From NCBI GenBank assembly GCA_021234155.1, contig JAJEKV010000111.1:1866968-1930967 (forward strand): a DNA stretch of 64,000 nt, read 5' to 3'. Of this stretch, positions 8,917 to 59,341 are shown piece by piece. The notes beneath the pieces were generated by a model. That model had not been told where the DNA came from, searched no databases, and saw only the letters and a list, made by a program, of their open reading frames with translations. The translations under genes were made by a program, and so were the position numbers. Position 1 is the stretch's first letter, and every line of letters begins with the position of its first letter. The DNA comes from Isoetes taiwanensis. Its lineage: Eukaryota; Streptophyta; Lycopodiopsida; Isoetales; Isoetaceae.

Positions 8917-11535
8917 CTACCTCTTTTTCCGGAGGGACTTCCGGGTCGATTGCAAAGACATCCGCGCCACCCCCTGCTTCCCATTTATTGGTGGTGTACT
9001 TTCCCCCGGAATAAGGTCACCGCCACCATCATGTACTGCATCTTGACTTCCCCTCCCCCTCCCCTGGCTATACACCCCTGCCTCCATATGCTTCCCATTT
9101 ATTGGTGGTGTACTTTCATGCCCAACCATACCATCAGGGGTTCCATAATTCCAGTCCACAGGAGGGAGGCTGTCTTCCTTGCTTTTTGAGCCCGTGCCAT
9201 CTTCACCGCTTTTTGTGCAAGAGGGACTATTGACCACAAGGGGGTGGCCCCCTATGGCCACCCATCTCTCCCCATTAATGTTGTCGCACCCATCCCTTTC
9301 TTCTCCGATATAGTTCTCCCCCTTTAGGCCACTTACAGTCTTCCCTTTATTATTTTTTGTGGTAGGTGGTCTACCCTCCAAGCCTCCCATCGTAGAGCCA
9401 TCCCTATCCTCATTATTTTCTGTGCAACTATCCCCATCGTCCCTGATTTCCATGTTATTCAAACCACTTTCTAGTCTCCCCTTCAAGAAAAAGTAGCCAT
9501 CATTGTCCACCTTATTTTCAGCACCAATGTCCACATCTGCACCGTTATTGTCACCTCCATCTATTTGCGTGCCACTTGCTCCCTCCACCTTGTTTACTGA
9601 GCCATCCCTATCCTCATTATTTTCCGTGCAACTATCCCCATCGTCCCTGATTTCCATGCAATCCCAACCACTTTCTAGTCTTCCTTTCAAGAGAAAGTTG
9701 CCATCATTGTCCACCTTCTTTTTGGCGCCAATGTCCCCATCCGCACCGGTTTTGTCACCTTCATCAGTTAGCGTGACACTTGCTCCCTCTACCTCGTTGA
9801 CTGTGCCCTCGTTGACTGTGCCCTCCTTGGAAAGTATGGCACCACACGATCCCTTTTGAGGGGAGTCGTTAAGAAGGGGCTCACTATCCTGAGTGCCAAT
9901 CTTTTCTTTTTGCGGGTCATCCGAGCCACTCTCTCGTCTCCCTTCAAGGATGACATTAATGTTGTTAGGAGGGGGCTCATTTCCCATAGCACCTGTCCCT
10001 ATCTCCTCATTCTGCGGGCCATAGGAACACTCTCCTTTATGGGGGACACAACCTTGGTTAATGTGGCGCATATCCCTATGCACCGAACCACGAGGGGGCT
10101 CATTTCCCATAGCGCCTATCCCTGTCTCCTCATTTTGCGGGCCATAGGAACATTCTCCTTTATGAGGGGCACAATCTTGGTTAATGTGGCGCATATCCCC
10201 ATGCACCACCCTGGTCACTGTTGGCGCATATCGCCCTCCTCTTGTACCTCGCCCACCCCTCCGACCAACCTGCCTAGGTATGCCCAGTTGCCAGCCATCA
10301 ACAGACTTGTGCTCACCAATGGCATCCTTGACGGCCTCCCTACAAGGGGGACCAGAATGGAACCTCTGACTATATAGCTTACAAGCTGGTGGAATTCCCT
10401 CAAGTCTCATGTCGAACCATTCCTCTTTCCTATCGAATCCCGTAAATGCCACCCCTGTAGGTATTGGCTGTAGGAGATCTATCATGAGGCACACCCTTCC
10501 CGGAGAGTCTGGTTTGAATTGACCCCAACAAACTCCCCCTACCGTGAGCAAATGGCCTTTAAAGCTGCAACACTCCAATATTCTCGCACTAAGGCCCGCA
10601 AGGGAGGTCCACACAGAAATCAGATCATATCTGGACACCTACCCTTAAAGCCTGGTCTCCACCTCTGCACAAAAAATTCCGCGTGCTTACAAGCAAGCAC
10701 TCCCCTACGAAAGAGCGTGTCTATCTCTTTTTCCGTGTTTGCCTTAATAAGAAAGTAGGGGGGGTCAAGCCATTTGACTCTGGGGAAGCCTTCGACACGG
10801 CATACTCTTTCAAGAGTTCTCCTGACGTCAATTAGATCAATGTATCCCCGGATCCCTCTCCCTATCAAGGCCATCTTGCCAAGCTCTCTAATGCCGCCAC
10901 CCACCGTATAACGTTAAAACGCCGATCAAGATATTTCCCTTACCTTTGTCTCCCCCCTCAGGGCCATAACTTCCCACTTGGGTACCACGTTGTTTCAAGG
11001 TGTTGTTCTGAGGCAAAAAAAATTCCATTTCTCGTAGACCGTCACCTTGGTTGGGGCATCCCTCAGGCCCACCTTGGCCCGATGTACTAGCCACCTCCTT
11101 GTATGTAGGTACCCTCAGCAAGGCTTTTCCACCACCTCGTGGAAGTAACACCTGGTCTTCCGCTTGTTGGGGATTGACTTGCACTTGTTGAGGACTGGCG
11201 CCTCCCTTGTCAAGCGCTTGCTGAGTCTTGGCATCTCCCTCATCAATGTTCAAGGTATCCATATGACATGAAGTATTCTCCTTGGAAGGCTCGTGGGCAT
11301 TTGTTGGATGGGCCATAGCTTGTAGATCAGTGGCCACCGCTTGAAGATGTCCCACTTGGGTTGGAGCCGTCCCCTCCAAATTTAAAGCATGAGGTTGAAG
11401 CAATGGACCCATGCCAGAGGCAAACACATCTTTATTGTGCAGAGCACAACAATTTTCTTTTATATATGAAACCTTCAAAACATCACCATATATAACGCCT
11501 TCACTCATAACTATGTAAAGCAAAATGGCTACCAA
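8917..11535 (-). pseudogene. LINE-1 ORF1: DUF4283-type RNA-binding protein with degenerate zinc knuckle
   Basis: Three overlapping frames (11535-10888, 10904-10620, 10638-8917) join into one ORF1. The middle holds the DUF4283 core ending in VQRWRPGF, followed by the usual TSLAGLSARILE segment. A CX2CX4HX4C knuckle follows, but its second Cys is Tyr (C86, Y89, H94, C99 of the last frame; codon TAT at 10374-10372). The C-terminal ~450 residues are low complexity with two internal duplications: a block with HKGECSYGPQNEE appears twice, and one with MEIRDDGDSCTENNEDRDGS appears twice. ORF1 proteins bind LINE RNA. The Tyr change and the frameshifts argue that this copy is dead. Confidence 0.8.
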
Positions 11536-18259: not shown

Positions 18260-19109
18260 TTAAGTGCTTAAGTGCTTCAGTTTATGAAAAATAATGTAAT
18301 ATTGCGATTTATGTTTTAGATGCGTCACTTTGAGCACCATAGTGGATTCATGCACATGCTTAATGGAACTTGCAGAGGGATGAAGTGCTACAAACCTGGT
18401 CACAGATTGCCCAAAGGACATGTATATAATGGTGCTTAGGGGATACCGCCGCTTCAGAAGTTCCTTTGATTGAAGAAATAATATAACCCTGTTGCGGGGT
18501 TTTACCCTTTTTTCCAAGCTAGAGAGCAAATAAAATGGAGCGTTGAGAATTTCATCCAAGGGATACTTCATATCCTCTGTAAGGTATCTAAATTTCTCCA
18601 CGACATGTTCATTTTTTATGCACGGTATTTGAGGATATATCTGCAGAATGTGATAAATACTCTGAGGTGGAAGTCCGAGGCTGAATAGATAGCCCAACCT
18701 TTTTTCTAATGTGAGAATCCCATATGATGAATACCTTGCTAATGCTGTGACAAAATATTTGGAGCTTTGATCAATGCCAAGGCTCGACATAAATTCTATA
18801 CGAGCAGCCAAGGTGTCGTAAGACCTACACAAAAATGATGGCCTTATTTTAAGGATTTTATCTAAAACTTGGGCACTTATCTTATACCGTTGCAAAATCT
18901 CGTCCAAGCGCTTAATATTATGCTTAGAAATAAACAAGACAGACAGTGGCTGTGTAGATAACATTTTAGAAAGAAATACAACCTTCCAGGCCATACCTTG
19001 ATAAAAACTCAGCAACATGGCGCAGATTAAGAAGAATGGCATCGATACGAGGAACGAAATGAGGTGAGCTCACCAGACGGTTCTCAGGCAATGCCACCGT
19101 CAAAGGCAG
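18260..19109 (-). pseudogene. mTERF-family protein, C-terminal half, one frameshift
   Basis: The minus frame from about 18990 to 18260 has typical mTERF repeats. They include KMLSTQPLSVLF, KILKIRPSFL, LEKRLGYLFSLGLPPQSI, and the C-terminal signature SSLEKRVKPRNRVILFLQSK. mTERF proteins bind organellar nucleic acid and act in chloroplast or mitochondrial transcription, splicing or translation. Upstream, a second frame from 19109 reads LPENRLVSSPHFVPRIDAIL, continues to FLSRYGLEG and stops at TAA 18966-18968. Joining the frames needs a 1-nt change at about 18966-18995. The N-terminus and transit peptide are missing, so this is a fragment or the 3' exon of a larger gene. Confidence 0.75.
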
Positions 19110-21198: not shown

Positions 21199-22768
21199 CG
21201 CGGATCGCTCCAAGTATTTATATCAGATAATGATAAATATATCGACATCGCCACGCAAAGAAGTGATACGCCACCATGGGGTATTTTAACCTAGGGGGCT
21301 GACCTAAAAGGGATTAATTTAGCTATGCTAAATTAATTATTAAAGGTTAATTACCTATAATTAAGAAAATAATATCTAATTGACTTAATTAGGATAATAG
21401 ATTAACTAGGAAGGTGCAACTTGGCCAAATTCGATTGGCCAGCAGGAAATGCTAACTTGGGGCATCAAGTTGGACCCCTACCCCATAGTGCCCCAAAATC
21501 GAGCCAGGAGGAGGAGTTGTTGAGCGCCCCAGTTGTTGCTGAATGCCCAAGTTGTTGCTGAACACCCAAGTTGCTGAAAGATGGAAGTGCCCCATGATAA
21601 CGGATCTAGCAGAAACTCGGGTTAGTGGGTAGTCTAGCTTGAGCTTCTAGGATAGTGCCTCAGTTAGTCTTCTCTGGTTATCTTTGTTAAGATTAACCCT
21701 TCTTTGATATTTAGGATTATATTTCAATTATGGATTATGCTCTGTTAAGTAAGGATGGATGAATCTATGAAAGTATCTCTGTTAGCTTCCGTAAAGCAGG
21801 GATTAAAGGGGGGGTAGAGACCTCTGTGCCTTATGCTCTTAGTATGCTCCTAGTAGTTCCCCTAGTACCCGGTAAATGCGGCCTGTGAACAAGAGACCAC
21901 CGAGCCGTGGATGCTATGGAATTGCTTAGCACCAGAGAAGGGACGCAGTGGTGATGTGGGGGTGGGGTCTTGCACGAACATAAAAGGCTCCTGGGACTCC
22001 TACAGTGGGCTAGGCCTAATAGCTGGTCACGTAGAGGGCCGAGTATGGGTATGACACTTCCTGGGTGCAGCGGTGTGACCCGTATGGGGCATCCTGTACT
22101 TTGAAGATAAAGTTAGGGGAGTAGGTCTGCACGGATGCTGGGCCGCCGATGCGCACGATATTCTAGCTCACCCATGGAACCGCGCGGATCCCGAAGGGGA
22201 CACTTCCCCACTGCTTCATCGGACCAGGTCTTCATGAAACCCCGAGTAGGCTCGAAGGGTGATACCTGAGTCCGTCTCCCGAAAGATGCCATAGCATGAT
22301 TCACTCATCCGCAGTGTGCACGTGAGGGGCGATGGAGTGGACAACCCTAGCCGATGTTCTATGCCGCCCAACGCCATGCCAAGATTTGGTCCGGCTGATC
22401 TCTTGAGACCTAGCCATCACGATCCTCACCGGAGTCCGAGCCGGTAGAACCATGGGGTTTGGGATGTTTTCTCTAGTATTAAATGCATCTTCTCTGTTAT
22501 TATCAGTTGGATGGATGTGCCACCCTTCGTGGTGGTTATTTATGATATGATTATGCAGTATGCTAACCTTGTATGCACGCTTCTGCGATGTAGGAGTCCC
22601 ATTGAAGGCGTGGGCCGAATGACACCTCTGTGTCCTTCACTCGAGCATCTTTCTATAGATGGCCCGAGTTAGACGAAGGGCCCTACTCATGGCGAGTTGG
22701 TTGCCATGGGAGGGGAAAGTCCCCGTATATATATGTCTGAGTGTCGTATATGTTCTGGGAGCGTCACA
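21199..22768 (+). repeat. Chromovirus 5' LTR (~1570 bp)
   Basis: It matches the 3' LTR along its length, including GATACGCCACCATGGGG near its start and GGGAGCGTCACA at its end. The 5'-terminal TGTGAC seen in the 3' LTR is degraded here to CGCGGATC. The end CA abuts the primer-binding site. Many substitutions and small indels separate the two LTRs, so the insertion is old. A TATATATA run lies at about 22725. Confidence 0.9.
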
Positions 22769-22769
22769 G

Positions 22770-22782
22770 TGGTATCAGAGCC
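22770..22782 (+). other. Primer-binding site for initiator-Met tRNA
   Basis: TGGTATCAGAGCC lies one base after the 5' LTR. This is the usual plant retroelement PBS, complementary to the 3' end of tRNA-iMet, and primes minus-strand DNA synthesis. Confidence 0.93.
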
Positions 22783-23130
22783 GTGATTTCGGTTGCCCAA
22801 AATCATAGCACTGACCAAATCCTAACTCATTAGTTCGGTAGTTAGGTGGGAGTTTAAGCTAGTGGGATTGTTTAGCTCTTTGATGTTTGGTTTTGTGCTA
22901 GGTGATGTAATAGATTGTAAGTTTTTAAGAAAGTTAGGGCAACTGGAGGACCCAAGATTCAGAAGGTCATAACTTTTTGTAGATAGCTCGGATGAACGCA
23001 AAAATGGTTCCAATGGATCGGGCATCTCTCAAATATCCTAGGGGGCACGTTACCCGAGGTCAAAATGGCGATAGCAAGGCAAAAAAGTCAAAGGGGCGCT
23101 GTTGTCGGATTGAGTGTTTTTCTCGGAAAA

Positions 23131-23977: not shown

Positions 23978-25210
23978 ATGATGCCGCGCTTCAAGCTTAC
24001 CATAGACCTAAAGAAGGCGACTGTCTTCCAGCTGTACAGCGTGCTAGTGGACCATCTTTCAGATGATAGTCCCATGATCGACACTGTGTTAAACCTGCTC
24101 GTGATTCATTTCACTGAGGGCCATAGGATTCCCTACCCAATCTTCCATTTCAATGAACGCTTCCTCATGAAGCTGAATGCTGCAGACCAACCTTACACTC
24201 TTGTGGAGCAACCTGACCAAGCTTGGGCCATAGTTAAGTTTTATCCGCTAGCCAGCCCAGAGGAGGATCCCGTGGAGCTTCCGAACGGAGGCCCAACGGA
24301 TTTTGCATCTTGCTAGGGTAGAGGACCTCTAGCAGATAGCTAGTGCCCTACCAGAAGAGCGGGCTAGCCGTTTCTATTACCTCGGTAAAGGCCATGTGCT
24401 TATGTACAGGGACCATTACAATCTTCCCCCTTTCTTTTGGAATGAGGAACTATATAGCTTTGTCTTCGAGAATGTACCACCTAGCTTCACCCAGGACCGC
24501 ATGGACCTTGTGCAAGCTGAGATGCGAGCTCACCCGGCCCGGTACCATACGGAGATTGCCAGGCGGATACAAGTGCGCCAGGACAAGGAAGCCCGGGATG
24601 CAGAGAGAGAGAGAATCCGTAAGGCAGAAGAGGATGCCCAAACACAGCAGGGCGGGGATCAAAATGTTGATCAAAATATGGATCAACATGTGGATCAGGA
24701 CGGAGGTCAGAATGCTGTTGTCCCGGATAAGGAGGAGAGGTGGGGTAACCGAAAGAGGAAGATTACGAAGCCCACACGGGGAGGCGTCAATTACAAGACC
24801 CGGCTTCAGAAGGATGCCCAAATTGGAAAGAACACGTCGGCTCAGCGTCGGGAGCAGATTGTGCAGCGGGTGAAGCATCCCTCGACTGGCGGGATGTTAG
24901 TGCCATTGCTTAGGGCAACTGTCAAGCCGAGGAAGCCCCATCGGTTCCGACCGGGCACAGTAGCTCTTCGCGAGATACGTAAGTATCAGAAGACTACTGA
25001 GCCATTGATACGCCGGCTACCTTTCCAGTGGCTTGTCCGGGAGATTGCCCAAGAATTCAAGACCCTATCCTCGCACTCCAGGAGGCTGCCGAGGCTTACC
25101 TCATTGAGATTTTGAGTGACGCCAACCTCTGCGCCATCCATGCAAAGAGGGTTACCATAATGCCCAAGGATATCCAGCTCGCAAGGAGGATCCGAGGGGA
25201 GTTTCGGTGA
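23978..25210 (+). pseudogene. ORF-A: novel N-terminal region fused to a histone H3 fold
   Basis: ATG at 23978 opens a ~410-codon ORF interrupted by a frameshift near 24300, a TAG at about 24331, and a 22-nt net deletion at 25065-25075. The N-terminal ~240 residues are unrecognised. Next comes a charged linker with repeats ([15 protein letters not shown]) and an NLS-like NRKRKITKP. From 24882 the sequence is histone H3: STGG, then [44 protein letters not shown], and [20 protein letters not shown] to RRIRGEFR. The H3 tail is shortened, the Lys9 position is lost (HPS for RKS), R69 is Trp, and the deletion removes loop 1 and the start of helix 2. No introns. H3 normally forms nucleosomes with H4. 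Here it sits inside a retroelement just after the PBS. Confidence 0.85.
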
Positions 25211-25470
25211 CTATGGGACCTTCTTTGTTTTGTTGTAACATTTTGTGGATCTATCTATGTAAAATATTCTTATTGTAAAGCTGTAAATATAAAAGTGTCT
25301 CTTTCCGCCACTTGGTGTGTATCTAAGTCTAAATTATTAAGTAAATAATAAATTTCTTTCTAACCTAAAAAAACGTGCCGAAAAGTATAAAGTCACTTTT
25401 GGGCCATTAGGGTTTCATTTTCGTTTTCGCTTTTAGAGTTTGTCTCCTCCTCCCTTGCGCCTTCTTCCTC

Positions 25471-26825
25471 ATGGCTCGCCCAACGCTACAGCAGTGGTAC
25501 CTGGATGGCGAACACTGGGAGCGGTTCCTTTTGATCTTCTTCATCCTCATCTGCTCCAGCAAGTGGATCTCATCCACAACATGCAGGCGCACCCCGACTA
25601 CGCTGCTTTTCTTCAGTTCTACTGTGAGGAGATCGTGCCTGCATGCGTCTTCAATGAAGATGACGCACAGCTCTACCTCGACTTCCACACCTTGCTAGAG
25701 ATGTTGGGGGGCGATGATCATGCCCGGAATGTCATTAAGGGCATTAGGAGGAGAGGGACCGACCTCCCTATCGCTACTATAGATTGGGAAGTCTGTTTTG
25801 AGGCTCGATTCGCGCTGGCCATCATCATGGACCAGTATATTGAGGATGAGCAGATAGCGGCCGAGCAGTCTTCTACACCAGTGCCCCCTGACCCGGAAGA
25901 CGATGAGGTCGTCGACGAGCAGGATTTTGCCCGGTGGAAGGAGTTAGCCACCGAAGCACAGGCAGGTTGAGATAAAGCCCTCAAGCTCGAAGGGCTAAAC
26001 CTCCTCCCTGCCGTACTCTTGAACAACCAAGAGTATCTGATTCTCGAGGACATTATGTAGGCTTACCGTGTCATTGCTGATATGCGGGGCCGCCGAAAGA
26101 TAGAGGTCCACTATGACCTTGCCGAGTACTGCCAGGATGATTTTTTCGACTTTACAACACCTGTTGTGCATCCGCCACAAGTCGAGAACTTTTTAGTATT
26201 TCGGCCAAAAGAGCTAGAACCCGTTGAGACCCTTTTGTCTCTTCAGCAATTCCTATTGACTGATGCACCCCAGCCTCCAGAGGAGCAGTTTGCGGCTCAC
26301 ATGCGGCCTCCTTCTGCAGTTCAGCCTTTACAGATCACTATGGGAGGGGTGGATCAAGAGGAGGAAGACCTTTGGGACACCAAGATGAGTCTTAAGGATG
26401 ACAAGGAAGAGGCAGAGTAGGAGAAGATCCCTGTTAACTTGGAAAAGGAAGCAGAGACCTCCAGGGATCCGCAAATTAGGGCAATGCGCAACCATTTGAC
26501 CCGATTCTTCCTTTCAGCCTTCCGGCAAGGTGAGGTCTTGTTCTTTTCCAAGAACTTGGGGCCTTCTTCTGAAGCATCTTGGTGGGCGCTCCGTGCGTTA
26601 TCCACCTTGGCAGGCCATAAGAAAATTGACTATCACGCCACTACTATCACCTTGGTCCGACGAGATCTGGCAATCGTGGCATTGGGGGATGTGGCGGGCT
26701 GCGCTACTATGCGACTCCTTGTGGCGGCACCCTTGGCCACTTGCTTACCACCGGAGACAGCAGCTCGAGCCGCCCTCTTTGCTAGCCCCAGCACCACCTT
26801 GATGCGCTACCGACCACCTCCGTAG
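25471..26825 (+). pseudogene. ORF-B: unknown protein with a possible histone-fold C-terminus
   Basis: Starting MARPTLQQWYLDGEHWERF, one frameshift near 25530 and three in-frame stops (25968, 26058, 26418) interrupt an otherwise single frame of about 450 codons. The first 330 residues are acidic and unrecognised. Near the end, HATTITLVRRDLAIV (26634-26678) aligns without gaps to the H3 segment [15 protein letters not shown]: four identities and several conservative changes. Upstream spacing also fits helix 1, loop 1 and helix 2 (AFRQGEVLFF, then SSEASWWALRALSTL). This is suggestive, not proven. It lies between ORF-A and ORF-C in the chromovirus leader. Confidence 0.5.
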
Positions 26826-27055: not shown

Positions 27056-27543
27056 TTGTATATTCATTCTTGCCGTCTTACAGACGATGAGCTCGAAGAA
27101 ACCGACGACAGAATAACCAAAGAGCTACGAAGGGACGATCAGGGACCTCCCGACCAAGACTACGGTCAACGGTATGGGGAGAATCTGGATCGGGATGATG
27201 ATTACGAAGCGGGGGAACCCGTAGAAGAAGGAGAGCCCTATGATTCAACTAAAGGCTTTGAAATAGTCAATATTCTCCGTGAACGTGCTTTCGAGCATCT
27301 ACAACAAACTCTCCGTCGTACTTGGGATTACTGGGATATGACGAAGCACGAGGCTTTTGCCGATGCAAATGATCACTTATGGCAGATTTTTTATGCGCCA
27401 AGAGGCTTCTTCAATCTCCTTATCATTAGTCCCACGTTAGACTACCAGTACGTTATCATCCAGGCATGGGCTCGCTACAAGGTAGTCAGGGCAGTACGGG
27501 AGAGTATCCGTTACTCCATCCTGTACCCTTTCGCGCAGCCTTA
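27056..27543 (+). CDS. ORF-C: unrecognised acidic protein in the chromovirus leader
   Basis: An uninterrupted frame of about 160 codons. The start is uncertain because the first codon of the open frame is TTG. The N-terminal third is very acidic (DDELEETDDR, EAGEPVEEGEPYDS). The C-terminal part is helical-looking and aromatic (RTWDYWDMTKHEAFADAND, then QAWARYKVVRAVRESIRYS). No family is recognised. Unlike ORF-A and ORF-B it has no internal stop. Confidence 0.5.
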
Positions 27544-27803
27544 GGCCTGATCTCTTCAGTTTTTTTATGGCTAAAGTTTGTGTTGGAAAAAAAAAAATTG
27601 TCCAATGTATAATCACTACTTTTGTATTGTACAGCCCTGAGCTTTTGTTAAAACACACCTCCAATGTAATTGCCACTTTGACTTTGTAATAAAGACCTTT
27701 TCTTTAATTCTCTTGTATTGTCTTTGTTGTTGTTTCCTAGTACTACTCAAAATAATCTTCTTTGTGACACTTAGTATCACAATAATTCTGCTTATACCTT
27801 CTT

Positions 27804-29043
27804 ATGGCCAATATAGACGGTGCACGTAACGCCTCATGGCAGACACCCTCGAATGCTAGCAGATTAACACCTGAGCAAGAACTCATGTTGATGAAGCGGC
27901 AGTTAGTAGAGCTACAAGCTTATGTGTTAAATACCAACCCACCACAGCATATGCAGGAGGACAGACCGGAGTTACCTCCAAGTCCACCACCACAGCAGCC
28001 ACCTGCACCGGAACCAGGCCCTATACCCGCACAAAGGAGGCACCGTTCCAAACGTCGTCGAAGCTCGTCTATAGATAGTGCCACATCCTCACAATCAGCC
28101 ACTTCTGTGTCTTCAGAGTCATCTATATCATATGGTGACCATGCAAAGGCCCGGGACAAGAGTATGTGAAGATAAAGGCGGATACGGCCATAACCAGTAT
28201 ATGGAAAAATAGGAAATTGGCCCAGTTTGATGGGAAATCTAGAGGCGGCCTGAATGCAGAGTCTTGGTTGGACGAAATGAAGGAGTTCGGGAAATCCTAT
28301 GGGATGACAGAGAAAGATACAGGAAAAGTTGCCACTACAAACCTTACAGGGCGGCCTTCAGATTTGTGGAAGGGCTATGCTAGAGCCAAGCATCTAGAGC
28401 GAAGGCATGCAAGTTTAAAAGTTTGCCAAAGCTTTTAAGTCGCATTATGTGCCCTCGCGCACAAGTGCCAACAGATACGCATTTTTACGTGTTGGAGCGT
28501 AGGCTATGTCATTCAAGCCTACACGGATGAATTCACGCGCTTTGAGGCTATATGTGCCGTATGAATGAGAAGAGGGCGGTGGAGGGCTATATTGAAGGGT
28601 TGGCCCCATCAATTAAACGAATGGTTAAGGCCATAGACCTAAGTCACAGAGGGTCGAGGCTAAGGCATTGAGCCTTTGAAGAGGACACGCCATCTAAACC
28701 GCATCAGGCGGTCCCTCAGATCTTATTCCCAAATACCGCCAGTTAACACCCTACAAGCCCCTTTCACCAAGTCCTGGGCCTTCGCCAGAGAACTCTAATC
28801 TGGCCGCCAGAAAAGAAAGTCACTTTCAAAGATGTCTCACAAACCTAACAATGTCGGTAATGAAGTTCGAACCTCTTACAAGCCTATTCCCAAAGAGGCC
28901 CGAGCAGTCCAAGAAAAGAGAAAGCATGCTACAAGTGTATGCGGCGGGGCACTTTATGCACTGCCCTTATGTCACCCAAATCGCCTACCTGGCCATGGCT
29001 GATCTTGATTGGGATGAACTCGAAGTCTACACCACCTGCATTT
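27804..29043 (+). pseudogene. Chromovirus gag, decayed, with split zinc knuckle
   Basis: The start MANIDGARNASWQTP leads into a proline-rich and Ser/Arg-rich segment and stops at 28167. The next frame carries the retrotransposon gag core (FDGKSRGGLNAESWLDEMKE, TGRPSDLWKGY). 28439-28850 is badly scrambled. A CCHC knuckle is readable across two frames at 28927-28964: CYKCMRRG in one, then HFMH and C in the next, so a 1-nt indel splits it. Gag forms the virus-like particle and binds the element RNA. Confidence 0.75.
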
Positions 29044-29109: not shown

Positions 29110-29700
29110 TGCCGAAAGTCACCGCCGCTATTTCTACTATAGGTCAAGTAGACAAGAAGCCTTTCATAATTCTTATGGATACTGGTACACATAATTTTGC
29201 TTCTCCTAGGATGGCCTGTATTGCGACTTGAGACTTTAAGATCCCTAATCGAAGCCTCGTGACTTTTATTGGGAAGATCGTGACATACTCATGGCCGCCG
29301 ATTAACCTCAAAATGTACCGCCAGTGCACCAAAGGGCATTGGGTGCCGAAGTTAATGGATATTGGCAAATATGATCTCATTGTTGGTATGGAATTTTTGG
29401 CATCTGCAAAAGCAAATATAGACTGCGAAAAACGGGAGGTTACCTTCAACGCAGTTAATGGAGCCCGTGTAACTATAAAAGGTGATCCCTTAAACCCCAT
29501 TATGCAGTCTATGTCCATCAAGCAGTTAAATAAGGCTATGCGCAAGGATAAACTACTTTGCGTTATCAGACTTGCATCCATTGAGTCAGATGCTAAACAG
29601 AAGCAAGTAGTTGATGCCTTGCCAGAGAGCATTGCTAATCTTCTCAGGGAATTTAGCAATCTCTTCCCAGACGAGATCCAGAAACTCCCTCCATTCAGAG
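29110..29700 (+). pseudogene. Chromovirus aspartic protease domain
   Basis: KPFIILMDTGTHNFASPRM holds the catalytic D-T-G. A TGA at 29229-29231 stops the frame 20 residues later, and the frame resumes with [13 protein letters not shown] through [18 protein letters not shown], the usual end of this domain (GMDWL-type motif). The protease would have cut Gag-Pol. The nonsense codon inactivates this copy. Confidence 0.8.
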
Positions 29701-30440
29701 GGGTAGAATGTGAGATAGCTTTGGAGCCAGGTACTAAGCCTACCAGTAAGGCCCCGTACCGAATGAGTCCCCCTGAGTTGACAGAGCTTAAGAAGCAACT
29801 CCAGGAGTTGTTGAACTTAGGCTTTATTCGGCCTAGTGTTTCGCCTTTTGGCGCTCCTATCCTTTTTGTTAAGAAGAAGGATGGCTCCTTGAGGATGTGT
29901 ATTGATTATGGGCAGCTCAATAAGCATACCATCAAGAATCGCTATGCTTTGCCTAGAGCAGACGATCTTATGGACCAGTTGCAAGGGGCCAAGTACTTCT
30001 CAAAGATTGATTTATGCTCCGGATATCATCAAATAAGAATTAAAGAGGAGGACATCTATAAATCTGCCTTCCGCACTAGATATGGGCATTATGAGTTTAC
30101 CGTTATGCCTTTTGGGTTAACTAATGCCCCCGCAACTTTTATGCGATTAATGAATGATGTTTTCCGCCAATACTTGGATGATTTTGTTGTTATTTTCTTT
30201 GACGACATTCTCATCTATAGTAAGACCCTGGAGGAGCATGAGAAACATCTTCGGTTGGCCCTACAAAAGCTAAGACGTCACGAGCTCTTTGCCAAGTTTT
30301 CTAAGTGCAAATTTGCCACTCCCAAGGTGGACTATTTAGGCCATGTCATTTCAGCCGAGGGAATTGCTACAGATCCAGTAAAAATCGAGGTAGTCAAGGA
30401 TTAGCCCATTCCTGGTAATGTGTCAGAGGTCTGAAGTTTT
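29701..30440 (+). pseudogene. Chromovirus reverse transcriptase
   Basis: Contiguous open frame with [20 protein letters not shown], the [12 protein letters not shown] segment, [30 protein letters not shown], and the catalytic [19 protein letters not shown] (Asp pair at 30201-30206). The usual residue before DD is Ile or Val, here Phe. TAG at 30402 replaces the Trp of the common DWP motif, and TGA at 30432 replaces an Arg codon before SFLGLVGYYR. Confidence 0.92.
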
Positions 30441-30895
30441 TTGGGATTAGTAGGATATTACCGGAAGTTTGTTAAGGACTTTGCAAAGATTGCAGCACCT
30501 CTTACTGATCTTCATGAGAAGGTGAAGGATTGGATTGAGCATTGGAAAGCAAAGGTCCAGGTAAGTTTTCAGAAGCTTAAAGATGCTTTGACATCCGCAC
30601 CAGTCCTCACATTGCCGGATCCAGAGAAGGATAAGTTAGTAGCAACAGATGCCAGTAAGATTGCTACAGGCGGAGTTCTCATGCAAGAAGGGAGGGTTAT
30701 AGCCTACGATTCTAAGAAGATGAATGAGACGGAACAGCGATACCCTACCCATGATCAGGAATTGTTGGCTGTTGTTCGCGCTTTGCGTATATGGAGACAC
30801 TACCTTCTTGGTAGGAGATTCCAGCTTGATACGGATCATCAGAGTCTCCGTTATCTACAACCCAGCCAAATCTCAACCTCCGTCAGAGAAGATGG
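30441..30895 (+). pseudogene. Chromovirus RT connection and RNase H
   Basis: GLVGYYRKFVKDFAKIAAPL is the connection. RNase H follows with VATDASKIATGGVLMQ, YPTHDQELLAVVRALRIWRHYL and DTDHQSLRYL, giving the D-E-D catalytic set. After SLRYLQ the frame shifts near 30880 into MEFLEEYDFEIMYKPGKHN, the normal continuation. The domain degrades the RNA strand of the hybrid. Confidence 0.9.
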
Positions 30896-32171
30896 ATGGA
30901 ATTTTTGGAGGAGTATGATTTTGAAATTATGTATAAGCCTGGGAAACACAATGTGGTTGCGGATGCATTATCACGCCATCCCTTGGTAACCCAAACCCAT
31001 TGTAATGCAATTTCCACGCTCACCAGCAAGTTCGGAAAGCAGATAGAGCAGACCTTAGCTACAGATCCAGAGTTCTGTGATGTGTGGGATAGTTTGGCTA
31101 AGGAGGCACGCACAGATAAAGAACGTGAAGCTTTCCGTTCATATAAGAAGGAGGGCAATTTGTTATACTACAAAGACAAGTTGTGCATACCTGAGACTTC
31201 AGGAGTACGTAAACTTATTCTCCATGATACACACAACAACCCTATAGCTGGACATGCAGGTTTCATGAAGACCTACTTTAAGATCCGCTCCAGTTATTTT
31301 TGGCCGTGTATGAAGAAGGACATTGCCAGGTATATTAAGCAGTGTCAAGTGTGTCAACAAACCAAGGCTGAGCAACTAAGGATTCCAGGAGAGTTGCAAC
31401 CTCTGGATGTGACCAACGCTAAATGGGAAATAATAACCATGGATTTCATTGTGGGCCTTCCACGTACTCTCCGTGGATATGATGCATTGATGGTAGTGAT
31501 CGACAAATTGTCGAAAAATGGCTCATTTCTTGCCATGTCGCATCACGATATAGCCTTCGATACCGCTATTTACAACAAAGGAGATCTTCGGGATTGCATG
31601 GAATGCCACGAAGTTATCGATCCGATGTGGATCCCAAATAAGTGCATTCGGAAAGATTTCTTTGCTACCATCCAAACCAAGCTTGCTATGAGTACGGCAT
31701 ATCATCCTCGGATCGATGGTCGGGAGCGTGCCAATCGCATTATAGAGGATATGCTACGGTTATGTGTGGAGGGGCAATCACAATGGGTGACTATATTTAT
31801 TTGGTCGAATTTGCCTATAATAGCATGAAACAGAGTCTTCCGCATCGTCTCCCTTCATGATAAATTATAGTTATCAATGCCTTACTCCAGACAAATGGCA
31901 TAATCCCGTTTCTAAGGTGGAGGTTTCTCAACAACTCCTCTTGGAAATGCAAGCTTTGGTTGAAGAAGTTCGTGGCTACTTATTGGTCGCGACGCAAATG
32001 GCCAGGAAGAGTGTTGCCGATAAGCACAGGACCCCACGAGTCTTCCAGCTGGGCGAATCAGTTTGGCTCAAGATTAAGGTAAAACAAGCCAAGCTTAAGA
32101 TTGGTAACTGCAAGAAGCTGGCACCCAGATGGGCTGGGCCGTTCAAGATCATTGAACGTGTTGGAGAATAG
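30896..32171 (+). pseudogene. Chromovirus integrase
   Basis: VADALSRHPL precedes an HHCC zinc finger (HDTHNNPIAGHAGF ... CQVCQQTKAEQ). The catalytic core has WEIITMDFIVGLPRT with the first Asp and ERANRIIEDML with the Glu. The middle SDRD motif is ruined (VIDPMWIPNK), and the region between (31560-31650) is rearranged. LAMSTAYHPRIDG remains clear. The frame shifts near 31830 and runs on through QLGESVWLKI and KLAPRWAGPFKIIERVG. Confidence 0.88.
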
Positions 32172-32645
32172 GCATATCGTTTGGATTTGCCACCCCGCTT
32201 GAAGATCCACAAGGTTTTTCACGTGAGTCTTCTGAAACAACATACCCCAGATCCAGAGGAGATCTTGGATACACCCACCCTCCTTGAAATGACAGAAGAG
32301 CATCTAGATATAGTACCTGAAGCTCTTCTTGATCGAGCCTATAAGTAGACCAGAAGGACTCAAATGTTGCAATACTTGGTTAAGTGGAAACACTTGCCAG
32401 TTGAGGATGCTACGTGGGTCATGAAGATAGACCTTGAGAAACACTATCCGGACTTCATGCGGGAATCTCAAGGCCGCACTATCAACGACGCCATCAACCC
32501 CGCACCCGGCGGTAAGTTTGAAGGCTTGATTCGCCGAGAATCATGCAATAGAGGGGTAGATGCATCGTGGTTATCAGTAGTTACCGATGATGAGATCACC
32601 TTCGTGTTCTCTAGGAAGCGTGGTGTATTGTCGATGTTGGCATGA
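32172..32645 (+). pseudogene. Chromovirus pol C-terminus with chromodomain
   Basis: After TAG at 32169, the frame continues RLDLPPRLKIHKVFHVSLL, then LDRAYK and TAG at 32346. The chromodomain core follows: QMLQYLVKWKHLPVEDATW, then DLEKHYPDF. Chromodomains of such integrases bind methylated H3 tails and steer insertion into heterochromatin. The central Trp is present. The first aromatic-cage position is not clearly kept. A 55-residue extension after the chromodomain is unrecognised. Confidence 0.82.
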
Positions 32646-33616: not shown

Positions 33617-36600
33617 TTATCTCGCAGCAGTAATCCATTTAATATTATATTCGATTTGTTTAATTACAGCCTCAGGGTGGATAATTTCACACTGAAATAT
33701 GAATTGATTCCTCCCCTTCCACAATCTCCACAGAATGATATATAACCTCCAGTCCTTCGGGTCATTAGGCATAAAAAAATCTGTATGACTCATGGCATTA
33801 AGGTCTACCCCCATAAACCCAGACGCAAGCTCGAGGATCCATTCCGACCATAAACATCTTTTAAACAGATGATCCTCATCCTCTTTGTGCATAAGGCACC
33901 TAGGACACACATCCGAGTCTGCCATCTGAATTTTATGCCTTTTATAATTAGTAGCCAAAGCTTTATGCCATAACTGCCACATAAAAGATTTGATTTTGGG
34001 AGGAATCGGGCTCGACCACATAAACTTAAGGTTCCTGATACACCTATCCTCCCCAATCTGCCATTTAATGTGCATAGTTATGCCATTATCTTTAGTCAGG
34101 AATCTGTAGGCAGCTTTGACTGTGAACCCTGTGTTCTCATTATGATTCCAATTGTAGTCCTCTTCTGCCCACTTCCCTTGGGTTAGCATGGTGTGGATAT
34201 TGTTGTATAGAAGCTCACAACTTTCATCCTCTTCAGACATAACTGATTGCCCAAATGGAATTATCCCCTGATCATTGAACATATCACTTATAAGGTGGAT
34301 ACCTTTGGAACCCCATAATCTGGCCTGTTCAGGGAAGTGGCATGCTAAGCATAGGGAAGGGTCATTGGTCAGGAGGGCTGGATTCCAGAAAATAGATTGG
34401 TCCATGGCCAAGCCTTCTTTCCAGGTAAACATCCCCCTAACCAGATTCCATGCTCTAATCCATTTCTTGATCAGCCCAGGAGTGGAGTTTGAAACAGTAA
34501 ACGGGAAGTATATAGAGTGGGAAAGACTCATCTTCAGGTTCCTCCAGCCATAGGGGTGGCATTTAGTCAGGTAGTGCCTGATAATGATGGAGACAGGGTG
34601 GTTAATCCTATTATAGGCAGCTTTGAAGAAATATTTAGCTGCCAGTGCCACCCCCTGTTTTTCAATATCAATCACCCCCAGCCCCCCAGACTTTTTGTTC
34701 TTACAACACTCCTTCATGGCAACAGGGGTCCAACATCTCCTATTCTGACCACTAGAAATAAATCTGCCTATAATACTCTGGAGCTTGGAAGACACCTTCT
34801 TGGGCGCAAGGATGATTGAAGATTGGTATACATGAGAGGAAGATATAACAAAATTAGCTATGATGGATCTACCCTGCTTGGAAATGTATTTGGAGTTCAG
34901 ACTGTCAACCTTCTTTTGGAACTTTTCTATGATCTCAGTCCAGATATCAGAAGGGCTCCCCTTAAGAGCCATGGGCATCCCTAAAATTTTTGATGAATTA
35001 GTAGGTAGAATATACTTACAACCCATGAGAGCAGCCGTTTGCTCTCCTTTTACCTGATCCTTAGCCACAATCTTGGATTTGATTGGATTGATCTTACACC
35101 CTGAAGCTTCTCCAAACTCTTCTAGGATAGTTTGAGTGTTGCTGAGGGATACTAGCAGGAATGTGTCATCTGCAAAATGCCCATTTAAAATCTGATCCAT
35201 GTCCCCATTTTCTGGGAGAGTGAGTCCCTAGATCAGGTTAGTATTCTTGGCCTCTTCAAGCTTGCTATGAAGAGCTTCCATGATAATTAGAAACAGAAAT
35301 GGAGCCAGAGGGCACCCTTGTTTAACTCCCCTTTGTAAGGGGAAAAAAGGTCCACATTCTCCATTAATTAACACAGAGGACCTTGAATTAGAGAGAATAG
35401 CTTTGAAAATCAGAATTACCTCATTGGAGAACCCTAGGGCCCTACAACATTTGAATAGAAAGTTCCAGCTGACTGAGTCAAAGGCTTTTGTAATATCCAA
35501 TTTTATGAGAGCCACATCTTGATTAGTATCTTTAGCCCAATGTAATCCTAGAATAGCTGTAACAACATTGTCAAGGATAAACCTGTCCTTTAGGTAGGCT
35601 GCCTGGGAGGAACTAATAATTCTTTCGAGAACCGTCTTCAGCCTCCTAGCAATTGTTCCAGAGATAAGCTTGTATATAACATTGGAAAGGGAGATAGGCC
35701 TGTAGTCCGAGAAAGTAGCAGGCACATCTATCTTGGGAATAAGAGTGATCAGGCTCGTGTTGATTCTCGCATCCAGACACTTAAGATCCCTGAATTCATT
35801 AGCTAGACAGGTAATACAATCCCCAAGGATATGCCATACTTTAATGAAAAATTCAACTAACAGCCCATCCGGGCCCGGGCTCTTCCCTTTCTCCATATCC
35901 TTGGCAATTGAAAGAAGCTCAGCATTAGAAAAGGGCTTCTCGATGTTTAAGTTCTCCTTAGGGTTAACTTTGTTCCTGAGATTAATAAAGTCATCCATAA
36001 TATTCTGCTGACAATCTCGGTTTGTTCCCATAATATTCTTGAAGTGATCTGCAACAGCTACTTTAATCTGATCTTCATCCACTACCTCATCATCCCCTAC
36101 CTTTATCTCAAAGATGTGATTCCTCTTCATCTTGCCCTTAGCCTTGACAAAAAAAAACTTCGAACAACTTCTCTCATCATCTCGGATTTCCCTGATTTTG
36201 GCCTTCAGCCTCCATCCTTCTACAATCTTTATTTCTTCCCTCTCTATTTCAGTTCTAATGGCATCTTTCTCCTCCTCAGGGGCCCGCGTTAATCTAACTC
36301 TCAGATCCTGGAGGAAGGACATCTTTTGAGCATGCACTTCTTTGCCCCACTGCTTGAGCCAATTCTTTATTGCCTTGGATACCCTAATCCACCAATACAT
36401 CTATCCAGTAGTCCCATTAGGCCTGGGAAAGTTAGCAAGGACCTGCTGTAATCTGTCCTCAAACTCATCATGGTCCAACAGACTTGTGTTAAGCTTAAAG
36501 TAGGTCTTCCTCTTCCTTATACAAGTGTTGGCCATAATTCTTAGCTGTTGGGGAAAGTGGACCGAGAGAGTATAGCCCTCGAGATTATTAACCCTGTTGC

Positions 36601-37253
36601 TTTGGTTCCAAAGATTCTCCGAAAGGTAGTACCTATCATGAAGACACAAAGTAGGATTTGCTCTTTTATCAGTCTAACTATGGGATTCAGCCTTGGTTCT
36701 GGCTAAGGTTAGGTTGTGCCCCCGGATCAAATTTAGCCAGGCCTCCTTCTCCTGCTTACCTAGAGGTTTGAAATTCTTGTTTTTCATAAAACTGTTAGTA
36801 ACCATATTCAGATCACCTCCTAAAATGCATTCATCAAAATCTAAATTATCTAAACTACCCTTTACCTTTTTCCAAATCCCAACCGTTTCCCCAGGGCTAT
36901 TATAGGCATAAATATTAACCAAGGCAAGCCTAATCTTGAGGAAGGTACACAATAAGATCTGCCATCTGCCCTCTCTGTCATTGATCATATAGGTATCCGT
37001 AATATTGAGCCCATTATTCCAAGCAATTGCTATTCCAGTAGAAGAATCATTAGCAGGGATCGACCAAAGGCTGAAATTAGGGGGGAGAGTCCTGCTGATA
37101 ATAATGTTATGATTCAAGTCATGGATCTTGTGCTCTTGGATGAATAAAAAAATCCGGGTTGAGGGAGGAGAGGCATACTTTCAGCCTGTCCCTTTTAATG
37201 ATACTATTTATACCCTGAAGATTCCAGGTAATACAGCTTATATTTCTATCCAT
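33617..37253 (-). pseudogene. LINE-2 ORF2: endonuclease, RT, zf-RVT
   Basis: ATG at 37253 opens the endonuclease (ISCITWNLQGIN). After a shift near 37150 it reads IQEHKIHD, LALVNIYAYNSPGE and GGDLNM. The RT has KSPGPDGLLVEFFI, LIKLDITKAFDSVSWNFL, RGVKQGCPLAPFLFLI and the catalytic HFADDTFLLV. The tail has FMWQLWHKALATN and CPRCLMHKEDEDHLFKRC. Interruptions are few: one frameshift, and stops near 36672, 36400 and 35228. From 35200 to 33617 it is an unbroken 527-codon frame. A second copy of this family is at 62541-63790. Confidence 0.92.
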
Positions 37254-37297
37254 TAATATCTGTACTTACCGAGCTCCCTACCCGCTTGGACTGTTTG

Positions 37298-38628
37298 CTA
37301 CCTTGGGCTAACTCTACAGGGTCCGAAATAAAATTTCTTTTTGCCTCGACCCTTCCTCTTTTCCACCATATTCCAATGTTTATCTTCCATGTCCAAGAGC
37401 TTCTCAATGTCCTGCTGAACATCTGTCTCTGTTCTATTTTGTTTATGATCCGATATATCAGGCAAGGAGATAATAAAATCACCTGTATCAATTCTAACCA
37501 TCATATTTAAGTTTCTGATTAGAAAAGTCATATTGTCCTTTAATTCCACACTTGGGAGATTCTCTTGATAATTTTTTTGATAATCCTGGTTTAGACGGAT
37601 TATATGATTCTTCTCATTGACAAAGGTGGATCTAGATGATTCCCCATTCTCAACACAATTATCCGCAATGTCAGGGATAGAAACCTTATCTTTGTCAGTC
37701 GTTTTACCTTTGGGAACCCAAGCTTGTTTCATTTTCTGATCAGAACCCTGCGGAACCAGAACCGGCCACTTAGAGTAGTCAACAATTATATCCAGAAATT
37801 GATTGGCCTTAACTCTGGTTTTGATTTTTCTCTTCCAATCTGATTTGATTTTCTTGGAAATACAGACATAAGAGTAGTTCGTTTGCGGGATGTTTATATC
37901 AATGACCTCCCCTAGAGACTCCGAAATAATCTTCAAGTGGGAACGAGTCCAGAAGGCTGGGGGAAGATTGGGGAAGGATATCCAGGTGGAGGTTCTAATC
38001 TCACCCTCAGACCCCGGGATGAAATCAGGGGTCCACTTCATAATATAGAAAGGATTGTTAGCAATAAGATCCAGTTTCTCCTAAGGATATATCCCACACA
38101 CACTTCGTCCCTGCAAACAATTTGGAAAGTTCTGCTATCTAATTTTAGAATAGACATAATCGGGATATTTTGAGCCTTGGTAATCCAGTTCTTGACCTCC
38201 AATTGGGTTGGGCACTTGCGCGGGAAATGGATTAAGATAGCTTTCCTGGAGAAATTGTCAGTAGTAGAGAAATCCGGTACGCCAAATAAATCAATATAAT
38301 CCCCAATAACCCCACTATGGCCACCAGAATCAGTCGAATTAACTTCCTTATTACCCATAAGAACATTTTTATAAGAAGGGGGAGAAACAAGATCTTTTGA
38401 TTTGTCATTCTTCCCGATCACCGGAATATAGTTGGTTATCTTGTTCTCTCCAATCTTTGTTTTCGTGATGTTCAGCTCCGAAAGTTTAACCTCTTCACAA
38501 TTGCCGCAATCACAAGAGTTTACTTCCACTGGGTTGAAGAAGCCATTGGAATCTTTGATTTCACAGGTCTTAGTAGACTTTTTCCTTCTGATCTGATAGA
38601 CTTCCAGGGATGTAGAAATCCCTTCCAA
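37298..38628 (-). pseudogene. LINE-2 ORF1: DUF4283-type protein without a CCHC knuckle
   Basis: Two frames, 38628-38038 and 38041-37298, meet at a 1-nt shift near 38080. The first includes FSRKAILIHFPRKCPTQLEV and FQIVCRDEVCVGYILRRNW. The second has STWISFPNLPPAFWTRSHL and ESLGEVIDINIPQ, the DUF4283 tail where a zinc knuckle normally follows. None is seen: the sequence goes to a Lys-rich NYSYVCISKKIKSD. The N-terminal CDCGNC is the only Cys cluster. The protein should bind LINE RNA. Confidence 0.75.
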
Positions 38629-44829: not shown

Positions 44830-44972
44830 TGCTGCCGATAGGTCTGTGCTGTTCAACACAGCAGCGACATTGAACTTTGATTGATGTTATGAGGTTAATA
44901 TTTTACCATAGTTCTTGCTATTCTGTTTTTGTATGCTATGTGTCTTCTATGCTTCCAATGCATTTTCCCCAG

Positions 44973-47695: not shown

Positions 47696-49162
47696 TGCTA
47701 AATTAATTATTAAAGGTTAATTACCTATAATTAAGGAAATAATATCTAATTGACTTAATTAGGATAATAGATTAACTAGGAAGGTGCCACTTGGCCAAAT
47801 TCGATTGGCCAGCAGGAAATGCTAACTTGGGGCATCAAGTTGGACCCCTACCCCATAGTGCCCCAAAATCGAGCCAGGAGGAGGAGCTGTTGAGCGCCCC
47901 AGTTGTTGCTGAACGCCCAAGTTGTTGCTGAACACCCAAGTTGCTGAAAGATGGAAGTGCCCCATGATAACGGATCTAGCAGAAACTCGGGTTAGTGGGT
48001 AGTCTAGCTTGAGCTTCTAGGATAGCGCCTCATTTAGTCTTCTCTGGTTATCTTTGTTAAGATTAACCCTTCTTTGATATTTAAGATTATATTTCAATTA
48101 TGCATTATGCTCTGTTAAGTAAGGATGGATGAATCTATGAAAGTATCTCTGTTAGCTTAGTAAAGCTTGTGGATTAAAGGGGGGTAGAGACCTCGGCCTT
48201 ATGCTCTTAGTATGCTCCTAGTAGTTCCCCTAGTACCCGGTAAATGCGACCTGTGCACAAGAGACCACCGAGCCGTGGATGCAATGGAATTGCTTAGAAC
48301 CGTAGAAGGGACTAAAGTGGTGAAGTGGGGTGGGGTCTTGCACCTAACATAAAAGGCTCCCGGGACTCCGTGTTGGGCTAGGGCCTAATAGCAGTCACAC
48401 ATAGAGGGCGGGGTATGGGTCCGACACTCCACGGGTGTTGTTGTGACCCGTGATGGGGCATCCCGTACTTTGAAGATAAAGTTAGGGGAGTAGGAGATGC
48501 ACGGATCGGGGGTCGCTGATGCTGGCGTATTCTCTAGCTCACCCATGGATCCGTGTGATCCCGCAAGGGGACACTTCCCCGACCTGCCTCATTGGACCAA
48601 GTCTTCATGAAACCCGGAGTAGGCTCGAAGGGGTGATACCTTGAGTCCGCGTCTTGGAAGGCTATAGTGATGCCATAAGCGTGATTCGACTCATCCGCAA
48701 AGTGTGCTGGGGAGGGGCGGATGGAGTGGGACAACCCTAGCCGATGTTCTATGCCGCCCAACGCCATGCCAAGATTCTGGTCTGCCGATCTCTTGAGACT
48801 TAGCCGTCGGTCGATCCTCACTCGAGTCCGGAGCCAGGGTAGAACCATGGGGTTTGGGATGTTTTCTCTAGTATTAAATGCATCTTCTCTGTTATTATCA
48901 GTTGGATGGATGTGCCACCCTTCGTGGTGGTTATTTATGATATGATTATGCAGTATGCTAACCTTATATGCACGCTTCCGCGACGTAGGAGTCCCATTGA
49001 AGGCGTGGGCCGAATGACACCTCTGTGTCCTTCACTCGAGCATCTTTCTATAGATGGCCCGAGTTAGACGGAGGGCCCTACTCATGGCGAGTTGGTTGCC
49101 ATGGGAGGGGAAGTCCCCGTATGTATACGTCCGAGTGTCGTATATGTTCTGGGAGCGTCACA
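47696..49162 (+). repeat. Chromovirus 3' LTR, second part
   Basis: It continues the LTR from TGCTAAATTAATTATTAAAGG to GGGAGCGTCACA. With the first part it totals 1589 bp, against 1570 for the 5' LTR. It is followed by GATAC and LINE-3 sequence. Frames seen on either strand here are not genes. Confidence 0.92.
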
Positions 49163-49167
49163 GATAC

Positions 49168-56880: not shown

Positions 56881-57013
56881 ATCGAACATATACCCCGAAC
56901 GTTGTGTATAAAGAGGCACTTATATAAACATGGTATTTGATCAGCATTTTTGAATAAAACATCTTTTAAACAGTTCTTTGAAATTGATGGCTTTTAAAGG
57001 TTTTATAGAGTAA

Positions 57014-59123: not shown

Positions 59124-59341
59124 TATGCGTGATAATAAACGGAAGTAAGCTCCTCATGGATTAACCAATGGATGTTAAGTAGCACGGGGACAATGATGTA
59201 TTTGTGCACGCATAAGCTAGAATTTATCCAAATGAGGAATAAGATCAAAGATGTCCAAACCGAGGCGAGGCCCCGGCCGGAGGCGGGGGCCGAGCCAAGG
59301 AAGGGTGCAAAAGAAAAGGGTCAGGCCGGGCCCTTTTCTAG

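What the first reader, a model, noticed from the sequence alone, without database searches (positions are those of the whole stretch)
24882..25210. Retrotransposon-borne histone H3 fold
Seen: [39 protein letters not shown] and [20 protein letters not shown] lie between the primer-binding site and gag of a Ty3/gypsy element. The tail is altered (Lys9 position lost, Arg-Lys region shortened), R69 is Trp, and a 22-nt net deletion removes loop 1 and the start of helix 2. Known: H3 is normally a stand-alone ~135-residue nuclear protein, and I know of no described chromovirus carrying one. Inference: the element captured a host H3 as an intronless copy and may have used it to enter or mark chromatin.
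Basis: partly seen in the sequence, partly recalled or inferred. Interest (0 to 1): 0.93.

Follow-up and report, generated by a model that had tools for sequence, protein, structure and literature searches.

The report
Retrotransposon family carrying histone H3
A large family of jumping genes in what is almost certainly the quillwort Isoetes taiwanensis carries its own altered copy of the chromosome-packing protein histone H3, fused to an unknown domain and kept under strong selection, which suggests that the parasite plants its own histone in, or on, its host's chromatin.

Summary
The H3 segment is real. It is the C-terminal part of a ~410-450-residue protein (ORF A: unknown N-terminal domain, Gln/Asp-rich linker, basic stretch, H3) encoded between primer-binding site and gag of a chromodomain-bearing Ty3/gypsy element with 1.4-kb LTRs. 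The window copy is decayed, but two capped searches give 273 places of this H3 class in the genome, probably Isoetes taiwanensis (assembly size). I mapped 20 other copies, chosen by H3 match and mostly long open frames: all 20 have ORF A and a second unknown ORF (B), 18 have LTR sequence upstream, 19 have gag and/or pol downstream. The retro-H3s form one clade (100/97) apart from the five host H3s tested: one capture, long co-evolution. H3 is the most constrained part (dN/dS 0.04-0.055; gag, pol and ORF B 0.11-0.18). Fold and H3-H3' contact residues are kept; the tail has lost Lys9 and Lys27 acceptors. Most likely the protein pairs with host H4 and enters or grips chromatin; whether it blocks silencing, tethers integration complexes or does something else is not shown. 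The share of family members without H3 is unknown. My paper searches listed no histone-bearing LTR retrotransposon.

The parts
21326..22768 (+). 5' LTR (begins TG, ends CA)
   Evidence: self-blastn against 47696-49163, 91% identical; K2P 0.095 over 1438 columns
22770..22787 (+). primer-binding site TGGTATCAGAGCC..., like the plant initiator-Met tRNA PBS (recalled)
   Evidence: read directly
23978..24316 (+). ORF A, N-terminal domain, first piece (MMPRFKLTIDLKKATVF...); frame broken after it in this copy
   Evidence: ORF list; tblastn to N-term residues 1-101 of copy L035, 89%
24396..25115 (+). ORF A, second piece: rest of the N-terminal domain, linker, basic stretch, first half of H3, then out of frame
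   Evidence: ORF list; Pfam Histone 7.3e-12
24882..25068 (+). H3 tail remnant, alpha-N, alpha-1 up to EFKT
25070..25207 (+). H3 rest of alpha-2 to C-terminus, shifted frame after a 22-nt gap; stop at 25208-25210
   Evidence: Pfam Histone 1.8e-19; alignment
25440..26825 (+). ORF B, decayed here into three pieces (25440-25970, 26082-26420, 26439-26825); open over 432-490 codons, stop to stop, in 10 of 20 mapped copies; no known relative
27056..27544 (+). ORF C (~160 aa), unknown
27804..28438 (+). gag region
   Evidence: matches the gag part of copy L047, which scores Ty3_capsid 5.2e-15 and Retrotrans_gag 8e-15
29259..32168 (+). pol: protease, RT, RNase H, integrase zinc domain, SH3-like domain (in pieces)
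   Evidence: Pfam
32364..32645 (+). chromodomain at the integrase C-terminus
   Evidence: Pfam Chromo 1.3e-6
47696..49162 (+). 3' LTR

Best explanation
A lineage of chromodomain-bearing Ty3/gypsy retrotransposons in Isoetes captured a plant histone H3, presumably the host's, once and fused it to the C-terminus of an element-specific protein (ORF A) encoded between the PBS and gag. The fusion has been kept through long diversification (shown for the copies examined). Most likely the H3 part pairs with host H4 through the usual chaperones and enters, or tightly grips, host nucleosomes (inferred from the kept fold and contact residues). The N-terminal domain would then be carried on chromatin. 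Because the tail lacks the Lys9 and Lys27 acceptors, I think the protein mainly helps the element against silencing, or ties its complexes to chromatin for integration (inferred, not separable here).
For: Capture and retention: 273 distinct places of retro-type H3 on 107 contigs, union of two capped searches, classed by score and identity. ORF A and ORF B in 20 of 20 mapped copies, LTR sequence upstream in 18 of 20, gag and/or pol downstream in 19 of 20. One clade: 22 retro-H3s against 5 of the 15 host H3s plus 11 others, support 100/97. Selection: H3 globular dN/dS 0.042 (codon bootstrap 0.026-0.067; 16 copies, 120 pairs). By tblastn-mapped pieces: H3 0.055 and N-term 0.118 (20 copies; N-term 117 of 190 pairs, the rest saturated), ORF B 0.118-0.168 (18-20 copies), gag 0.110-0.136 and pol 0.179 (15 copies each). 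Function: 59 of 97 globular sites identical to host H3 in all 22 retro-H3s, among them C110, R116, D123 and L126, H3-H3' contacts (roles recalled). Tail K/R-H-P-x-T-G/S-G-K in 16 of 16; beside host H3 about ten residues around Lys27 are missing (by eye). A basic stretch (NRKRK or LKRTKSR type) precedes the tail.
Against: No expression, binding or localisation data. The mapped copies were chosen by H3 match and mostly for long open frames, so they cannot give the share of family members that lack H3, and they lean towards low dN/dS. Of 150 places found with the N-terminal domain alone, 63 have a listed H3 downstream; the H3 lists are capped, so the other 87 are undecided. Of two of those 87 read, one has H3 in two frames and one has only its first 19 residues. 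Position 87 in the chaperone-reading motif is Phe in 22 of 22, unlike Ser, Thr or His in the five host H3s read, so host chaperones may not take it. Strong conservation would also fit another use of the H3 surface. Two of the 20 mapped copies (L040, L048) have a stop inside H3.
Confidence: 0.6

Rival explanations
1. Tether: the H3 part docks the element's protein-nucleic acid complexes on chromatin or on H3-H4 chaperones to favour nuclear entry or integration, with no effect on silencing.
For: Fusion to an element-specific N-terminal domain; basic stretch; the same element already has a chromodomain.
Against: A chromodomain already offers chromatin targeting; loss of Lys9/Lys27 is not needed for tethering.
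Confidence: 0.3
2. Packaging: the H3 part, with host H4, condenses element cDNA or RNA inside particles.
For: Encoded upstream of gag in the mapped copies that have gag; marseillevirus-type histone doublets are tied to genome packaging (PMC9145170, passages).
Against: Only one of the four core histones is recognisable; retrotransposon particles carry RNA and form in the cytoplasm (recalled).
Confidence: 0.1
3. Chance host-H3 pseudogene inserted in this one copy.
For: The window copy is frame-broken.
Against: 273 places of this H3 class, same order of parts in 20 of 20 mapped copies, one clade, dN/dS far below 1.
Confidence: 0.01
4. Centromere-type H3: the element took or evolved a CENH3-like protein to reach centromeres.
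For: T107 is Ala in 22 of 22; change at 107 is a CENH3 trait (recalled).
Against: Loop 1 has canonical length; F84 is kept in 22 of 22, Q68 in 21 and D81 in 20; the places lie on 107 contigs.
Confidence: 0.05

Closest known systems
Plant chromoviruses, e.g. SM-Tcn1 of Selaginella moellendorffii (PMC2864245, passages read)
   Same: Ty3/gypsy pol with a chromodomain after the integrase; lycophyte host
   Different: SM-Tcn1 is 5704 bp with two ORFs, gag and pol; this element has about 5 kb between LTR and gag coding a histone fusion and two further ORFs. The RT clade was not tested here.
Phalaenopsis giant Gypsy elements with an AlkB RNA demethylase (PMC9289625: abstract, section 12 and passages read)
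   Same: Large Gypsy element with a captured, retained host domain in an extra ORF
   Different: There an RNA-demethylase enzyme; here a core histone. That survey of 121 angiosperms reports 15 extra domains; none of those named in section 12 is a histone, but not all 15 are named there.
Single viral H3 and H4 histones, e.g. Cotesia bracovirus H4 and algal-virus H3 (PMC9145170, passages read)
   Same: One host-like histone, mostly 73-89% identical in the fold, some with a lengthened N-terminus, thought to enter host nucleosomes
   Different: Those are in DNA viruses; here it is an LTR retrotransposon, the added part is about 300 residues, and Lys9/Lys27 are lost
VANC anti-silencing proteins of Arabidopsis VANDAL transposons (PMC10398659 and PMC5735166, search listing only)
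   Same: Transposon-encoded protein against host silencing (works-like comparison only)
   Different: VANCs are sequence-specific anti-silencing proteins, not histones; VANDALs are DNA transposons (recalled)

Membership tests
Chromovirus (Ty3/gypsy LTR retrotransposon) | paired LTRs and PBS | tested here: met
   LTR pair 91% identical; PBS read at 22770
Chromovirus (Ty3/gypsy LTR retrotransposon) | gag, protease, RT, RNase H, integrase in Ty3 order | tested here: met
   Pfam hits in order in the window pieces and, up to RT, in copy L047; the integrase core domain itself did not score, only its zinc and SH3-like parts
Chromovirus (Ty3/gypsy LTR retrotransposon) | chromodomain at the integrase C-terminus | tested here: met
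   PF00385 1.3e-6, 28.6 bits against a cut-off of 25.1
Chromovirus (Ty3/gypsy LTR retrotransposon) | target-site duplication | tested here: inconclusive
   5-bp flanks read do not match; the copy is old
Core histone H3 | histone fold recognisable as H3 | tested here: met
   Pfam Histone in 17 of 17 ORF A copies, best 3.6e-44; 80-89% identity to host H3 over residues 38-134 (22 sequences)
Core histone H3 | stand-alone protein of ~135 residues with canonical N-tail (Lys4, Lys9, Lys27) | tested here: not met
   C-terminal part of a 411-450-residue frame; Pro at the Lys9 position, Lys27 region missing
CENH3 | longer loop 1 and the changed residues typical of CENH3 (recalled) | tested here: not met
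   canonical loop 1 length, F84 kept; only T107A. No CENH3 sequence was in the tree.
Viral singlet histone | encoded by a DNA virus | tested here: not met
   retrotransposon with RT
Nucleosomal histone by function | assembles with H4 into nucleosomes | not testable with these tools
   needs biochemistry

The most novel reading that the evidence does not exclude
The element makes its own nucleosome subunit: an H3 that cannot be methylated at Lys9 or Lys27, joined to an element-specific domain, which host machinery builds into chromatin. That creates stretches the host cannot silence, beside a chromodomain integrase of a kind that reads the very mark this H3 lacks.
Probability: 0.3. Interest if true: 0.96.

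Novelty: new variant of a known kind. Interest (0 to 1): 0.88.

Why it matters
Captured core histones are described for DNA viruses (PMC9145170, passages); my searches listed none for a retrotransposon. [quoted passage not shown] It makes 'how do transposons meet chromatin silencing' directly testable: one protein with an H3 fold, missing the silencing acceptors, in an element that also carries a chromodomain.

Tried and rejected
Single-copy pseudogene: rejected. ORF B or the ORF A N-terminus as a second histone fold: Pfam (best stray hits E 0.11-0.13), a PDB profile search for ORF B, and profile comparison with one H2A, H2B, H3 and H4 sequence each gave nothing significant. A single-sequence model of the ORF B C-terminal piece (mean pLDDT 61.6) is mixed alpha/beta, with no match at E <= 0.001 in PDB or the viral library. 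The N-terminal model (pLDDT 40.6) is useless. Relatives of ORF A's N-terminal 290 residues: 967 candidates, none at E <= 1e-3. The whole of ORF A: 4188 hits, the best 120 listed, with local alignments of 30-46% of the query and histone domains. L056/L057 looked at first like a host H3 variant, perhaps CENH3; one search showed a degraded N-term-like piece upstream of L056, so I treat L056 as a diverged element subfamily. L057 was grouped with it by sequence alone; its flank was not read. One search, run to name L056, singled out no relative.

Not done: a search with full-length ORF A did not complete, so the share of family members without H3 is open. RT clade, expression and other Isoetes species were not tested.

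Full report
What is there. 24882-25210 encodes most of a histone H3 in two frames. It lies 2.1 kb downstream of the PBS and 2.6 kb upstream of the gag region, inside an LTR element that runs from 21326 to 49162. The element has Ty3-type pol and a chromodomain. Its LTRs differ by K2P 0.095, which is about 7 My at an assumed 6.5e-9 per site per year. The span is inflated by later insertions, among them a LINE-like stretch on the minus strand (33.6-38.6 kb; judged by eye from the translations) and polypyrimidine repeats.

Whose genome. The window lies in a 1,658,258,908-base assembly of 1110 pieces. The Isoetes taiwanensis assembly is 1658.30 Mb in 204 scaffolds plus 909 contigs (PMC8566536, passages). 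I take the host to be I. taiwanensis; this rests on size and piece count alone.

A family, not an accident. The 79-residue H3 piece finds 150 scored places out of 4321 first-look candidates, all with E < 1e-26; 35 of the 150 have an open frame of 400 or more codons and no stop in the match (my count). A canonical H3 finds 15 host genes at 96-98% identity over all 136 residues, then a gap from 270 to 188 bits, then 135 further places at 71-86%. The union, host genes left out, is 273 distinct places on 107 contigs. Both searches are capped at 150, so more may exist. I class them as retro-H3 by score and identity; element context was checked in the 20 mapped copies, and partly in L058. I read 10 kb around each of 20 places, chosen by H3 match and mostly for long frames. 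All 20 have N-term and H3 in order, and all 20 have ORF B; 18 have LTR sequence upstream (not L033, L040). Downstream, 19 have gag and/or pol (not L038; L041 only a short pol piece). ORF A is open from stop to stop over 403-485 codons in 19 of 20; L040 has 350.

Anatomy of ORF A. An N-terminal domain of about 210 residues, with no relative found; a Gln/Asp-rich linker; a basic stretch; a tail remnant; and an H3 histone fold. Over residues 38-134 the 22 retro-H3s (20 mapped plus L056 and L057) are 80-89% identical to host H3. Phe87 and Ala107 are fixed in 22 of 22, while C110, R116, D123 and L126 are unchanged (their roles are recalled). The tail keeps TGGK (TSGK in L015) but has Pro at the Lys9 position in 16 of 16 aligned copies. 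Aligned by eye with host H3, about ten residues around Lys27 are missing and Lys36 is Arg.

Origin. In a maximum-likelihood tree of 97 columns, 22 retro-H3s form one side of a branch with support 100/97, against 5 of the 15 host H3s and 11 other H3s. The program warns that the bootstrap had not settled, and no CENH3 was included. A diverged subfamily (L056) has an N-term-like piece upstream as well, so the fusion appears older than the split of the subfamilies.

Selection. Nei-Gojobori dN/dS on 16 ORF A copies: H3 globular 0.042 (bootstrap 0.026-0.067), N-term 0.145, linker 0.273, tail 0.158; on 10 ORF B copies 0.130. One search drops saturated pairs (of 120 it uses 120 for H3, 59 for N-term, 66 for linker, 86 for tail; all 45 for ORF B); one search gives the same order with another cut-off. 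By tblastn-mapped pieces: H3 0.055, N-term 0.118, ORF B pieces 0.118, 0.146 and 0.168 (20, 20 and 18 copies), ORF C 0.192 (17 copies), gag pieces 0.110 and 0.136 (15 copies), pol 0.179 (15 copies). Saturated pairs dropped there: N-term 73 of 190, ORF C 61 of 128, gag 26 and 12 of 105 each, pol 7 of 100, second ORF B piece 2 of 190, the others none. Copies chosen by H3 match and open frame lean towards low values for H3. Even so, H3 has mean dS 0.73-0.80 with dN 0.03-0.044, far from neutrality.

Against the reading. With the N-terminal domain as query, 63 of 150 places have a listed H3 within 4 kb downstream, median distance between listed starts 867 bp. For the other 87 the capped lists do not decide. 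I read 301 bases at two of them: L059 holds H3 in two frames, L060 only the first 19 residues before unrelated DNA. So damaged copies exist, and the frequency of H3-less members is not known.

Mechanism. Shown: fusion, one clade, retention in the copies examined, purifying selection, loss of silencing acceptors. Inferred: pairing with H4, entry into chromatin. Speculative: whether the gain is anti-silencing, tethering or packaging. I lean to anti-silencing plus tethering because the conserved fold is what nucleosome entry needs, and the tail loss removes what the silencing machinery writes on.

In print. Judged by titles and abstract starts, my searches of open-access papers listed no histone-bearing LTR retrotransposon: 20 of 121 listed; six direct phrases, zero papers; 13 of 13; 1 of 1; 6 of 13; 14 of 14; 8 of 20; 4 of 4. 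A review of viral histones treats DNA viruses, and the stems 'retrotranspos' and 'retrovir' do not occur in its main text (PMC9145170). The two Isoetes genome papers hold zero occurrences of 'histone' in the main text. In a paper on plant retrotransposon chromodomains I read 12 passages and saw no histone-bearing element (PMC3350952). Most subscription papers and preprints are outside the library.

Noticed in passing
25440-26825; copies L031, L036, L042, L046 etc.: ORF B, ~460 residues, present in 20 of 20 mapped copies (dN/dS 0.13 on 10), without a significant Pfam or PDB relative: a second unknown protein of the element.
   Followed up: partly
27056-27544: ORF C, ~160 residues between ORF B and gag, nothing above a Pfam cut-off; found in 17 of 20 mapped copies by tblastn.
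   Followed up: no
L056, L057, L058 (contigs C1033, C1077): Diverged H3-bearing subfamily with Ala102, Gly105 and a different tail; the N-term piece upstream of L056 is degraded.
   Followed up: partly
33617-38628, minus strand: LINE-like non-LTR element (by eye) nested in the chromovirus; similar stretches at 62.5-63.7 kb in the opposite orientation.
   Followed up: no
43068-44830 and 57013-59124: Two related polypyrimidine (TTTCCC-rich) repeat arrays giving long artefact ORFs of Phe/Pro/Ser.
   Followed up: no
18260-19042, minus strand: mTERF-family gene piece (PF02536, 9.1e-22), probably a host gene next to the element.
   Followed up: no
1-3847: Tandemly arranged blocks 90-99% identical to one another.
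   Followed up: no
8917-10638, minus strand: 573-codon ORF with internal repeats near a non-LTR reverse transcriptase (5.2-8.4 kb, by eye).
   Followed up: no
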